Assembly: GCF_001543245.1 (NCBI RefSeq)
Contig: NZ_CP014163.1
Coordinates: forward strand, 434,001 to 498,000
DNA length: 64,000 nt
Source: Aerococcus urinaehominis
GTDB lineage: Bacteria > Bacillota > Bacilli > Lactobacillales > Aerococcaceae
Reading direction: 5' to 3'
Positions 4,045 through 6,434 of the stretch are shown here, one piece after another (the first letter of the stretch is position 1; each line of letters begins with the position of its first letter). Under the pieces are notes generated by a model. That model saw only the letters and a program-made list of their open reading frames with translations. It made no database searches and was not told the DNA's origin. The translations under genes and the position numbers were made by a program.

Positions 4045-4074
4045 TAAGAGGTTAGGAAAACTCCTAACCTCTTA
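4045..4074 (-). terminator. Original frr terminator, now displaced by the IS
   Basis: Perfect 13-bp stem TAAGAGGTTAGGA / TCCTAACCTCTTA with a 4-nt loop; on the minus strand it is followed by TGTTGTTTTTG. Without the insertion sequence it would lie about 13 bases after the frr stop. The 8-bp target duplication overlaps the outer stem, so the element inserted at the foot of this terminator. Confidence 0.7.
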
Positions 4075-4078
4075 TTTA
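4071..4078. repeat. Target site duplication, left copy
   Basis: CTTATTTA directly flanks the left end of the insertion sequence and is repeated exactly at 5860-5867. Eight bases is the duplication length known for ISL3-family elements. Confidence 0.92.
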
Positions 4079-4104
4079 GGTTCTATACTTTTTGGTGTTG
4101 GTGA
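4079..4104 (+). repeat. IS left terminal inverted repeat
   Basis: Begins GGTTCTAT and includes GGTGTTGGTGA. It pairs with the right end 5834-5859, and its inner part is also the left arm of the inward-facing terminator. Confidence 0.88.
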
Positions 4105-4130
4105 GTAAAAACTCACTGACACCTTTTTTT
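4094..4130 (+). terminator. Inward-facing terminator at IS left end
   Basis: 13-bp stem GGTGTTGGTGAGT / ACTCACTGACACC with two G-U pairs on the plus-strand RNA, loop AAAA, then seven T residues (4124-4130). It would stop read-through from outside before it reaches the transposase gene. Confidence 0.75.
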
Positions 4131-4161
4131 ATTTGGAATCACAAAAAGCCAGTGAATTCTT

Positions 4162-4195
4162 TATAATTAAGTTGTCAGACAAAACTACAAAGGAG
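4162..4195 (+). promoter_or_regulatory. Transposase promoter -10 and ribosome site
   Basis: TATAAT at 4162-4167, without a convincing -35 box, and AAAGGAG at 4189-4195, 7 bp before the transposase ATG. The promoter lies inside the element, downstream of the left-end terminator. Confidence 0.55.
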
Positions 4196-4202
4196 AATTC
4201 AC

Positions 4203-5555
4203 ATGGCTCAAAATGATTGTATCAAAAACCTATTAAGTATTACAGACGAAAATATTAAATTAGAGGACAAGGTAACGATTAAAAAGATTAAACAAGTGAC
4301 TCATAAAGTAATCTACGGCACACTAACTTATCAACCAGACAGCTGTCCAAATTGCCTCCATAAGGAGGCTGACCAAGCTAGTATTATTAAGCATGGTTAT
4401 AAACTATCGCGCATTTTAATAGGTGAATTCAACACACAACCAATCTCTTTAGTATTAAAAAAACAGCGATTTTTCTGTAAAAATTGCCAAATTACGTTTA
4501 CAGCCTCTTCTAATCTAGTTGCTAAAAATTGCTTTATTAGTCGCCAAATCAAGTGTTTAGCGATACAAGAATTATCAGAGTCGCAAAGTATGTCCTTAAT
4601 CGCTAAAAAACTTAATATTTCAAATTCTACTGTTATTCGTCTGCTTGAATCGACTGCTAAACAATTCAAACAAAGTTACCGGCAACTACCTAGGCATTTA
4701 TCTATTGATGAGTTTAAATCTGTTAAAAATGTCTCAGGCGCTATGTCTTGCATCCTAGTGGATGCAGCTAATCATCGTTTATTTGATATATTAGAAGATC
4801 GGACGCAAGCTTATTTAAGAGATTATTTTATGCGTTTCCCTCTGGAAAAGAGAAAGCTAGTTGAAACGATTACCATGGATATGTACTCACCTTATTATGA
4901 TTTTTTACAACAAATCTTTCCAAATGCGAAAATTATTATTGACCGATTCCATATTGTCCAACTACTGAATCAGACTTTGAATAGCCAACGGATTCTTGTG
5001 ATGAATCAACAACCTAAGCAATCAACACACTATCGGAAATTGAAACAGTTATGGAAGCTGATTTTAAAGAACCAAGAAGCACTGAATAGTGTTAATTACC
5101 GCACACATCGCTTATTTGATGGCCTTATAACAGAAGCAGGTATAGTTGAATTTATGCTTAATATCGACAGTAAATTTAGAAAAGTCTATGATGTCGTCAA
5201 TGAGCTCAAATATCACCTTAAAACAGGGAATATCAATGCTTTCCTACATACAATTAGTCGCAATAAGAGCCAACGGCTCCCGAAGAATTTGAGAAAAACG
5301 ATGAATACTCTGCTCAAATACTTACCTGCTATTATCAATAGCTTTCGTTATACACTTTCCAATGGGCCAATTGAGGGTATGAATAATAAAATTAAGAATA
5401 TTAAGCGTTCCGGATTTGGTTACCGCAATTTTTATCATTTAAGGGCAAGGGCTTTTCTTTCCTTTAAATCATATGAGGTAAAGAGGGAAAATAAACCTAC
5501 CATAAATAGAAAGATTGAAAAGCTAGATACAGAATCTAGGGCCCTATGTGCCTAA
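4203..5555 (+). CDS. ISL3-family transposase
   Basis: DDE transposase of 450 residues that moves the insertion sequence. An N-terminal zinc-finger-like region has cysteine pairs C48/C51 and C92/C95. A helix-turn-helix region lies at about 128-150. The catalytic core shows D169 in SIDEFKSV, D226 in TMDMYSPYYDF and E391 in GPIEGMNNKIK, followed by the typical GFGYRNFYHLRARAFL tail. The reading frame is uninterrupted and full length, so the element could be active. The ATG follows AAAGGAG. No second gene lies within the ends; a small reverse ORF in the tail is explained by the structured region. Confidence 0.96.
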   Translation: MAQNDCIKNLLSITDENIKLEDKVTIKKIKQVTHKVIYGTLTYQPDSCPNCLHKEADQASIIKHGYKLSRILIGEFNTQPISLVLKKQRFFCKNCQITFTASSNLVAKNCFISRQIKCLAIQELSESQSMSLIAKKLNISNSTVIRLLESTAKQFKQSYRQLPRHLSIDEFKSVKNVSGAMSCILVDAANHRLFDILEDRTQAYLRDYFMRFPLEKRKLVETITMDMYSPYYDFLQQIFPNAKIIIDRFHIVQLLNQTLNSQRILVMNQQPKQSTHYRKLKQLWKLILKNQEALNSVNYRTHRLFDGLITEAGIVEFMLNIDSKFRKVYDVVNELKYHLKTGNINAFLHTISRNKSQRLPKNLRKTMNTLLKYLPAIINSFRYTLSNGPIEGMNNKIKNIKRSGFGYRNFYHLRARAFLSFKSYEVKRENKPTINRKIEKLDTESRALCA

Positions 5556-5800
5556 GTTAAAAGATATTTTTTACTAGAGGCGGAAGAGAATGGGCATCTG
5601 TTAGCCATGTTAAGCACGCCAAAGAAATACAAGCTGTGACAATCCTAGAGCCGTAGGAGCAACGCGACGTACGGATATAGCGATTGACTACAGCTTGTTT
5701 GAGGCTGGCGAGGTGAGAGACCTTGGCTCGAACCGGTGCCATGGCTGTTGAACAGATGACCAATTCTCTGGAGACTCTAGCCTATGGCTAGAAAAAATAA
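5556..5800 (+). other. Structured non-coding 3' tail of the IS (nested dyad 5574-5780)
   Basis: No gene is supported here. Eight nested Watson-Crick helices can be read directly: 5574-5579 with 5775-5780; 5585-5591 with 5763-5769; 5595-5602 with 5751-5758; 5603-5609 with 5740-5746; 5614-5617 with 5736-5739; 5629-5637 with 5690-5698; 5640-5644 with 5682-5686; 5651-5655 with 5670-5674. That is about 51 bp, capped by a 14-nt loop at 5656-5669. A side hairpin AGGT/ACCT sits at 5711-5723. If transcribed it would form the 3' UTR of the transposase mRNA. It could be a structured RNA or a DNA cruciform; function unknown. Pairing by eye is clear, but no folding energy was computed. Confidence 0.7.
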
Positions 5801-5829
5801 AAAAGACCGAAGTCAAAACTTCGATCTTT
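5790..5829 (-). terminator. Inward-facing terminator at IS right end
   Basis: Stem AAAGACCGAAGT / ACTTCGATCTTT (5802-5813 with 5818-5829). The single mismatch is a G-U pair on the minus-strand RNA, and the stem is followed there by TTTTTTATTTTTT. It now terminates transcripts leaving frr and keeps them out of the element. Confidence 0.77.
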
Positions 5830-5833
5830 AATA

Positions 5834-5859
5834 TCACCAACACTATTTGACAAAGAGCC
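5834..5859 (-). repeat. IS right terminal inverted repeat
   Basis: Read on the minus strand it begins GGCTCTTTG and contains GTGTTGGTGA, matching the left end at 18 of 26 positions. Confidence 0.88.
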
Positions 5860-5867
5860 CTTATTTA
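5860..5867. repeat. Target site duplication, right copy
   Basis: CTTATTTA, identical to 4071-4078 and directly abutting the right end of the element. Confidence 0.92.
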
Positions 5868-5873
5868 TCAAAA

Positions 5874-6434
5874 CTAAACTTCTAAAATTTCTTTTTCCTT
5901 GTCCTTAGCCATAGCATCCATACGACTGATACTTTCATCAGTCAATTTTTGGATATCTTTTTCATAGTCACGTAAGTCATCTTCAGAAATTTCAGCAGCC
6001 TTTTCAGCTTTCTTAACAATGTCCAGCGCATCACGGCGAATATTTCTAACGGCTACCTTGGCAGCTTCAAGTTCTTTACCGACATTTTTGCTTAATTCCT
6101 GGCGACGTTCCTTGGTCAGGGCTGGGATAACCAAACGAATGACATTGCCATCATTAGTAGGCGGAATACCAATATCTGACATTTGTAAGGCCCGGTCAAT
6201 TTCTGCCAAGGCCGTCTTGTCGTATGGTGTAATTAAAAGCATACGAGGCTCAGGGACTGTGATATTAGCCAATTGATTAAGTGGCGTTGGGGCACCATAG
6301 TACTCCACCATTACACCATCTAATAAACTAGCATTGGCTACGCCAGCCCGAATACGGGCTAACTGATTCTGTAAAGAGTTTTCCGATTTAGCCATCCGCT
6401 CTTTAGTTTCTTTTAAAACAGTATCTACTGACAT
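5874..6434 (-). CDS. frr: Ribosome recycling factor
   Basis: With EF-G it splits the post-termination ribosome. The 186 residues match the family length of about 185. The N-terminal helix carries [14 protein letters not shown] with the conserved arginines, followed by [26 protein letters not shown] and the second-domain stretch FDLN-free [22 protein letters not shown]. It begins 1 bp after the pyrH stop, in the conserved rpsB-tsf-pyrH-frr order. The insertion sequence begins only 14 bp beyond its stop, so its transcript now ends at a terminator inside the element. Confidence 0.97.

What the first reader, a model, noticed from the sequence alone, without database searches (positions are those of the whole stretch)
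5574..5780. Large nested dyad in the non-coding tail of an ISL3-family insertion sequence
Between the transposase stop and the right end, eight helices nest within one another over 207 nt, all with Watson-Crick pairs (about 51 bp; positions in the feature entry), ending in a 14-nt loop. This is far beyond chance for a stretch of this length. ISL3 elements are not known to me to carry such a structure. By analogy to the non-coding guide RNAs recently found in IS110-family elements, it could be a functional RNA in the transposase 3' UTR. It could instead be a DNA cruciform, a transposase-binding site or an mRNA stabiliser. The direction of transcription is inferred: read-in from the right is blocked by a terminator.
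Basis: partly seen in the sequence, partly recalled or inferred. Interest (0 to 1): 0.8.

Follow-up and report, generated by a model that had tools for sequence, protein, structure and literature searches.

The report
Structured RNA carried by mobile elements
The hairpin behind this jumping gene is one copy of an apparently uncatalogued, highly conserved RNA shape that rides inside several kinds of bacterial jumping elements, in some genomes in dozens of copies; what it does is not yet known.

Summary
The dyad is real (window 5574-5780; fold z -6.5 and -7.4 on the two strands; 67 nested Watson-Crick pairs against 43.4 +/- 2.8 in shuffles). It lies in the 3' tail of an intact ISL3-family element (4079-5859, 8-bp target duplication) but is not specific to it. 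Covariance models find the same branched structure in 37 of 395 Lactobacillales genomes (17 of 80 genera) and, in samples of the class and phylum, nowhere outside that order; Rfam 15 has no match. Some genomes hold dozens of copies. 27 of 29 base pairs change on both sides while some loop positions stay fixed. A tandem-GA motif, G-U over A-C and fold energies mark the transposase-sense strand as the folded one. The module sits sense, just behind the transposase, in three separate ISL3 lineages of one genus; two have 34% identical transposases but 89% identical RNA. It also fills transposase-less ISL3-type MITEs with perfect target duplications, and one MITE with unrelated ends. ISL3 elements without it are multi-copy, and no guide-like matches were found. 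I read it as a sense-strand structured RNA carried as cargo, probably acting through a host factor. Transcription and function are untested.

The parts
4071..4078 (.). 8-bp target-site duplication, left copy (CTTATTTA)
   Evidence: identical 8-mers flank the element; 8 of 8 intact copies in the genome have perfect 8-bp duplications
4079..5859 (+). complete ISL3-family insertion sequence, 1781 bp
   Evidence: terminal repeats and target duplication; 8 full-length copies plus one interrupted copy in the same genome
4079..4104 (+). left terminal inverted repeat (GGTTCTATACTTTTTGGTGTTGGTGA)
   Evidence: read directly; outer boundary fixed by the duplication
4094..4123 (+). terminator-like hairpin with T-run facing transcription that enters from the left
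   Evidence: 3 terminator-like sites found in 4060-5900, 1.3 +/- 1.3 in shuffles
4203..5555 (+). ISL3-family transposase, 450 aa
   Evidence: Pfam DDE_Tnp_ISL3 E 8.6e-53 and Zn_ribbon_ISL3 E 8.1e-9
5574..5780 (+). whole dyad: the RNA module with its outer stem
5599..5752 (+). core of the conserved RNA family (model R2 full-length match)
   Evidence: G000:C1:439599-439752, E 1.8e-25, positions 1-119 of 119
5604..5609 (+). P1 inner helix, 5' strand (GCCAUG), pairs with 5740-5745
   Evidence: 6 of 6 pairs of this helix change on both sides on A5
5614..5616 (+). GCA, pairs with UGC 5737-5739
   Evidence: 2 of 3 pairs change on both sides on A5
5617..5620 (+). P2 5' strand (CGCC), pairs with GGCG 5707-5710
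   Evidence: 5 of 5 model pairs of this helix change on both sides on A5
5621..5629 (+). 5' side of the internal loop (AAAGAAAUA here; family ..GAAUUA)
   Evidence: conserved unpaired columns
5630..5697 (+). P3 variable arm (CAAGCUGU/ACAGCUUG base; enlarged apical part in this element)
5698..5706 (+). 3' side of the internal loop (UUUGAGGCU)
5712..5734 (+). P4 hairpin GGU-GA-GAG[ACCUUGG]CUC-GA-ACC
   Evidence: tandem GA in 153 of 234 sequences, fully Watson-Crick in 59 of the other 81, TC/TC in 0
5740..5745 (+). P1 inner helix, 3' strand (CAUGGC)
5802..5829 (-). terminator-like hairpin facing transcription that enters from the right; a weaker + strand one at 5808-5823 could end the transposase/RNA unit
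5834..5859 (-). right terminal inverted repeat
   Evidence: read directly; outer boundary
5860..5867 (.). 8-bp target-site duplication, right copy (CTTATTTA)

Best explanation
The dyad is one copy of a family of structured RNA modules for which I found no catalogue entry. A long P1 stem leads to a junction with a P2/P3 arm that has an internal loop with conserved positions, and with a P4 hairpin that has tandem G-A pairs and a C(CNNG)G-like loop. The module is carried as non-coding cargo by some ISL3-family insertion sequences (transposase-sense in every case seen) and, much more often, by transposase-less MITEs with ISL3-type ends in Lactobacillales chromosomes. Shown by computation: the structure, its covariation, the folded strand, vehicles with 8-bp duplications, presence in unrelated elements, and no match outside one order in the samples searched. 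Inferred: in a full element the module lies in the 3' UTR of the transposase mRNA, and in MITEs in read-through transcripts. Inferred and uncertain: it works as RNA through a host factor shared by Lactobacillales (an RNase or RNA-binding protein that recognises P4 and the internal loop), stabilising, processing or insulating the transcript that contains the element. That would help any mobile element that carries it and explain why it occurs in unrelated vehicles.
For: Covariation: on A5 (29 distinct rows, fitted to the model) 27 of 29 pairs change on both sides, score 0.731 against at most 0.112 when slid, 0 of 500 shuffles; on the MAFFT alignment A2 (13 rows; structure drawn from these sequences by inspection) 18 of 29, 0.402 against at most 0.082. 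Strand: among 234 distinct sequences G-U 132, A-C 65 (binomial p 2e-6, which ignores relatedness); the 2x2 site in P4 is GA/GA in 153, fully Watson-Crick in 59 of the other 81, TC/TC in 0; the + strand folds better in 163 of 191 copies. Sense orientation: 9 matches in the window's genome, the nine placed all lie in ISL3 copies and are sense; 21 of 22 in G017 and 5 of 11 in G018 sit behind an ISL3 transposase, all sense. Mobility: MITE duplications in G112, perfect at 3 of 6 places scanned; a 281-bp empty-site difference with an imperfect (7 of 8) duplication. Transposase independence: 34% identical transposases with 88.8% identical RNA; three separate tree positions; non-ISL3 ends with duplication GGGGATTT. 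Order restriction. No fixed orientation to host genes, 1 of 62 between divergent genes.
Against: No transcript has been seen; the left flank is not conserved in G040 and no promoter was searched for systematically in the relatives. G-U pairs are few (132 against 5498 Watson-Crick), fewer than I would expect for an RNA, so a folded single DNA strand is not excluded. Over 22 site comparisons between two related Aerococcus genomes the core is no better conserved than its surroundings (0.867 core, 0.865 rest of MITE, 0.870 flank), which speaks against strong selection on each copy after insertion; some of those pairings hold masked stretches or may be wrong. Averaged over all columns of A5, unpaired columns are not more conserved than paired ones (0.68 and 0.66). 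Of the A5 measures, the number of further pair types was reached by 11 of 500 shuffles. No host factor is known.
Confidence: 0.45

Rival explanations
1. A strand-specific single-stranded DNA hairpin: the folded + strand (for instance on the lagging strand) is the functional form, used for transposition, target choice or recombination, as in other folded-ssDNA recombination sites.
For: Very low G-U share (132 of 5630 standard pairs); many copies lie between genes in both orientations in a genome with no ISL3 transposase hit (G007); tandem GA is also stable in DNA (own knowledge).
Against: ISL3 elements without it are multi-copy; different transposases and one unrelated pair of ends carry it; in full elements it was always sense to and just behind the transposase.
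Confidence: 0.2
2. A mobility RNA of the element: it guides or regulates the ISL3 transposase, as bridge RNAs do for IS110.
For: Recurrent position just downstream of ISL3 transposases in three lineages; ISL3-type ends on MITEs in several genera.
Against: No exact matches to ends or target sites above shuffles; each of 8 copies has a perfect duplication at a different, mostly AT-rich target; a perfect-duplication MITE without most of the module in the same genome (L012, 238 bp, a single copy); module-free ISL3 in many copies; the module in a MITE with other ends.
Confidence: 0.13
3. A neutral hitchhiker whose arms are kept complementary by template switching and copy-to-copy gene conversion rather than by selection.
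For: Few G-U intermediates; at several shared sites the two genomes carry different sequence variants of the core while the flanks look orthologous; core not better conserved than flanks over the 22 comparisons.
Against: Template switching would also repair the unpaired GA/GA site and the internal loop, which persist while stems turn over; strand asymmetry; presence across several families of an order.
Confidence: 0.12
4. Symmetric DNA cruciform or transposase-binding palindrome.
For: Length and perfection of the outer stem.
Against: GA/GA in 153 and TC/TC in 0 of 234 sequences at the P4 internal site, G-U over A-C, + strand folds better; branched structure with asymmetric loops.
Confidence: 0.05

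Closest known systems
Mobile/repeat sequence candidates, e.g. MRSC-65-2 motif (PMC11109978; passages seen)
   Same: Covarying structured motif, dozens of copies per genome, inconsistent orientation to genes, sometimes near a transposase; the authors also leave open whether the RNA or the DNA form matters.
   Different: MRSC-65-2 is described as a single long stem with UYCCGG repeats in diverse phyla; the module here is branched with conserved loop positions, lies inside defined ISL3-type ends with 8-bp duplications, and was found in one order only.
MITEs and small mobile repeats with secondary structure (RU-1/2/3 PMC2759123 and REP/BIME PMC2817692: abstract starts in the listing; NEMIS/CREE, ERIC, BOX recalled)
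   Same: Short, transposase-less, mostly intergenic, palindromic, many copies.
   Different: One branched structure kept across several families of an order, and presence in complete, unrelated IS lineages in the same place and orientation.
IS110 bridge RNA (PMC11208160, PMC11208158: abstract starts in the listing)
   Same: Conserved structured RNA encoded in the non-coding part of an insertion sequence.
   Different: ISL3 transposase instead of an IS110 recombinase, no matches to ends or targets found, not needed for ISL3 in general, shared by distant transposases.
ISL3-family insertion sequences and their MITEs
   Same: Transposase, terminal repeats and 8-bp duplications.
   Different: A carried structured RNA is not part of the family description that I know (recalled). 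28 of 30 other ISL3 transposase loci gave no match to the module (a few of these loci end near a contig end).

Membership tests
ISL3 insertion-sequence family (the vehicle in the window) | DDE transposase of the ISL3 type | tested here: met
   PF01610 E 8.6e-53
ISL3 insertion-sequence family (the vehicle in the window) | terminal inverted repeats and 8-bp target duplication | tested here: met
   8 of 8 intact copies
MITE (vehicle of many relatives) | short element with IS-type ends and target duplication, no transposase, moved in the recent past | tested here: met
   G112: 3 of 6 distinct places scanned show both ends and a perfect duplication, the other 3 did not match the end patterns; one clean empty site between G007 and G008 among 7 site pairs aligned. 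For many copies in G007 and G040 ends were not recognised.
IS110 bridge RNA / guide RNA | cognate recombinase of the IS110 type | tested here: not met
   ISL3 DDE transposase
IS110 bridge RNA / guide RNA | loops matching element ends and target | tested here: not met
   longest exact matches 6 and 6 (ends; shuffles mean 7.4) and mean 6.75 over 8 sites (14 of 60 shuffles as high); G-U pairing and mismatches not tested
Rfam families | match above gathering score, or E up to 5 | tested here: not met
   window at gathering: only a tRNA elsewhere; ten relative loci at E up to 5: seven matches, none over the module's core
Mobile/repeat structured motif (MRSC type) | covarying structure, many copies, inconsistent orientation, link to transposase genes | tested here: met
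DNA cruciform element | symmetry between strands | tested here: not met
   strand asymmetries
Functional small RNA | transcription as a discrete RNA | not testable with these tools
   no RNA-seq available here

The most novel reading that the evidence does not exclude
A new class of mobile structured RNA: a transposase-independent RNA module that passes between unrelated transposon families, has spread through an order of bacteria with (by extrapolation) up to hundreds of copies per genome, and works by engaging a host RNA-binding protein or by its own chemistry (for example as a ribozyme or a trans-acting RNA).
Probability: 0.25. Interest if true: 0.88.

Novelty: new variant of a known kind. 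Interest (0 to 1): 0.72.

Why it matters
A structured RNA that keeps its shape by compensatory change across a bacterial order, and that is found in three ISL3 lineages and in a MITE with other ends, probably gives mobile elements something useful that does not depend on their transposase. It is a defined, testable object for asking why non-coding cargo is kept in bacterial MITEs, and no match to it was found in Rfam 15. Genomes rich in copies, such as those of Aerococcus, would need it for correct annotation between genes.

Tried and rejected
Guide-RNA reading: an exact-match test of the module against element ends and 8 target sites gave nothing above shuffles. Cis-regulatory leader: rejected, because orientation to neighbouring genes (mechanically called ORFs) is even, and the ORFs beside single or rare copies in ten loci looked different by eye (not annotated). 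Known RNA: Rfam at gathering and at E up to 5 found none over the core. A virus-borne element: no match in viral contigs with one exact pattern or in phage records with the window sequence. A plasmid-borne element: five queries, three without a match and two that hit the same Aerococcus tenax record of 591,691 bases. Group II intron or self-cleaving ribozyme: compared with motifs from memory only, no likeness seen, not tested. A first model match for the window itself (5645-5752) was a misalignment caused by the long P3 arm; model R2 places it at 5599-5752. A de novo terminal-repeat search with a strict threshold found 1 of 275 entries, because ISL3 ends match each other too weakly for it. A profile scan for ISL3 ends was positive on both sides in 3 of 40 copies in G007 (control 0) and 0 of 22 in G040, so in those genomes most copies have decayed or unrecognised ends. 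A match of part of the P3 arm to tandem repeats in another genome (L031) was judged a separate small repeat. IS66 as source of the other MITE ends: two weak transposase matches in G020 exist, but the ends were not found in the fetched loci. Literature: searches found no description of this module in listings and passages; they cover open-licence PMC papers only.

Full report
What is there. The window holds a complete ISL3-family element at 4079-5859: terminal repeats, an 8-bp duplication CTTATTTA, and a 450-aa transposase with the Pfam ISL3 domains. Its genome has eight full-length copies and one interrupted copy; the eight have perfect 8-bp duplications. Between the transposase stop and the right end lies the dyad. 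It folds far better than shuffles on both strands and has 67 nested Watson-Crick pairs against 43.4 +/- 2.8 in 60 shuffles.

It is a family, and it is not tied to this element. A DNA search of 76 genomes of the same family found the core also in genomes that gave no ISL3 transposase hit (G006, G007, G008, G015). Copies lie between genes in G007, G040 and at one A. tenax place, though another A. tenax place lies under an annotated gene, and one G007 copy overlaps a mechanically called ORF. Named members are Aerococcus sp. HMSC062A02, A. kribbianus, A. tenax and two records titled Streptococcus sp. 263_SSPC and Carnobacterium maltaromaticum 757_CMAL. In the order, 37 of 395 genomes and 17 of 80 genera matched at E up to 1e-4. 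A second model matched 4 of 398 genomes drawn from the class, all of the same order, and 1 of 398 drawn from the phylum, the window's own; how many of those genomes lie outside the order is not shown. These scans score few candidates per genome and lose weak matches. In 220 kb of G007 and 180 kb of G040, stretches chosen because they were rich in hits, there were 40 and 22 copies (63 matches, one copy split at a piece boundary); a count in the hundreds per genome is an extrapolation.

Structure. Seen across relatives, P1 is a long stem, GCA/UGC extends it, P2 carries an internal loop (..GAAUUA / UUUGAGGCU) and a variable hairpin P3, and P4 is GGU-GA-GAG[ACCUUGG]CUC-GA-ACC. On alignment A5 (29 distinct rows, fitted to the model) 27 of 29 pairs change on both sides; the covariation score is 0.731, against at most 0.112 with the partners slid and a mean of 0.183 in shuffles, none of 500 as high; the count of further pair types was reached by 11 of 500 shuffles. 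On the MAFFT alignment A2 it is 18 of 29 and 0.402 (slid at most 0.082), but that structure was drawn from the same sequences. In A5 (27 of 30 rows used) 12 of 59 unpaired columns, among them UGA of the internal loop, A and C of the P4 loop and two G before the closing stem, are at least 90% conserved, against 8 of 58 paired columns; the means are equal (0.68 and 0.66).

Which strand. Among 234 distinct sequences, with two ill-defined P3 positions left out, there are 5498 Watson-Crick, 132 G-U, 65 A-C and 217 other cells. The two-by-two site in P4 is GA/GA in 153 sequences, fully Watson-Crick in 59 of the other 81, and TC/TC, which folding of the other strand would show as GA/GA, in none. The + strand folds better than the - strand in 163 of 191 copies; in 132 random stretches of G007 the split was 68 to 64. 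Related sequences are counted many times in all these figures. The folded strand is thus the transposase-sense strand. The low G-U share leaves a folded single DNA strand possible.

Vehicles. In the window's genome the model gave 9 matches with 48 candidates scored, and the nine places listed all lie in ISL3 copies. In G017, 21 of 22 module matches start 87-158 bases behind an ISL3 transposase match on the same strand, in two transposase groups; in G018, 5 of 11. The two G017 groups have transposases 34% identical but 125 bases of module 88.8% identical. In a tree of 46 transposases the module-bearing rows need 4 changes, well-supported branches force at least 3, and none of 200 bootstrap trees joins them (some branches are long, and labels follow the group each row belongs to). 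All three lineages are of the window's genus. Of 30 other ISL3 loci tested, 28 had no match. In G112 the module fills MITEs of 251 bp; 3 of 6 distinct places scanned show ISL3-type ends and perfect 8-bp duplications. The ISL3 transposase loci of G112 and G133 that I tested have no module match in their own tails; one of them (L236) has a match upstream, in a neighbouring copy. Copies in G076 and G098 have clear ISL3-type ends by eye. Of 7 site pairs aligned between G007 and G008, one is a clean empty site: a 281-bp difference, an 8-bp duplication with one mismatch (TAATAAAG/TAATAAAA) plus a 273-bp element with ISL3-like ends; a second is nearly clean. One MITE in G020 has unrelated ends (14 of 14 bases alike) and duplication GGGGATTT. 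Many copies have no recognisable ends: with a profile of ISL3 ends 3 of 40 in G007 and 0 of 22 in G040 score on both sides.

What it does. All 35 module copies that lie with an ISL3 transposase in G000, G017 and G018 are sense to it, which fits a 3' UTR RNA. Copies in G007 and G040 show no preferred orientation to neighbouring genes and 1 of 62 lies between divergent genes. The module is not needed for ISL3 mobility in general and shows no exact match to element ends or targets beyond shuffles. A 238-bp MITE in the window's genome that lacks most of the module has a perfect duplication. Because very different transposases and one unrelated set of ends carry it, I think it serves any vehicle by acting on the host side, as an RNA that stabilises, processes or insulates the transcript it lies in. 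That step is inference. Over 22 site comparisons between G007 and G008 the core is no more conserved than the flanks (0.867 against 0.870). Looked at afterwards, six pairs whose MITE remainder matches well have cores of 0.91-0.98 and flanks of 0.86-0.94, while others carry different variants, are masked, or may be wrongly paired. So selection may act while elements spread rather than on every resident copy.

What is known. Rfam 15 has no match over the module. Six literature searches found no description. The nearest published kind is the mobile/repeat sequence candidate, such as MRSC-65-2 (PMC11109978, passages). I file this as a new variant of that kind: structured, covarying, mobile, but branched, found in one order, and carried inside defined transposon ends.

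Noticed in passing
L011/L014 and L012/L013 (same genome as the window): Two short ISL3 derivatives without the RNA body; the 238-bp one (L012) has a perfect 8-bp duplication GTTTTTTT and keeps only the 3' end of the module.
   Followed up: partly
L009 and L010 (G000:C1:400398-403534): One ISL3 copy of the same genome is split by about 1.3 kb of other sequence.
   Followed up: no
window 4094-4123 (+) and 5829-5802 (-): Terminator-like hairpins at both ends of the element face incoming transcription, as if the element shields itself from read-in.
   Followed up: partly
L128-L138, L262-L301 (G007 and G008): At several shared sites the two Aerococcus genomes carry different sequence variants of the RNA core although the flanks look orthologous; gene conversion, replacement, inversion between copies or wrong pairing could explain it.
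   Followed up: partly
L031 960-1530: A roughly 170-bp tandem repeat in another genome contains a short stretch very like the enlarged top of the P3 arm in the window (about 5646-5679).
   Followed up: no
L018 1439-1755: A 317-bp MITE with ends GTAAGCGGTCGATAGCC and duplication GGGGATTT carries the same RNA; its transposase was not identified.
   Followed up: partly
L235 (G112): An ISL3 element seems to have inserted, with 8-bp duplication ACTATTCA, into a decayed RNA-bearing MITE (read by eye).
   Followed up: no
L149, L160, L171: Records titled Streptococcus sp. 263_SSPC and Carnobacterium maltaromaticum 757_CMAL carry the module in the form of a genus of the window's family; they may be mislabelled.
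   Followed up: no
L035 1498-1586 (G017): In this form of the module the P3 arm ends in the same ACCUUGG loop as P4, so the loop occurs twice.
   Followed up: no
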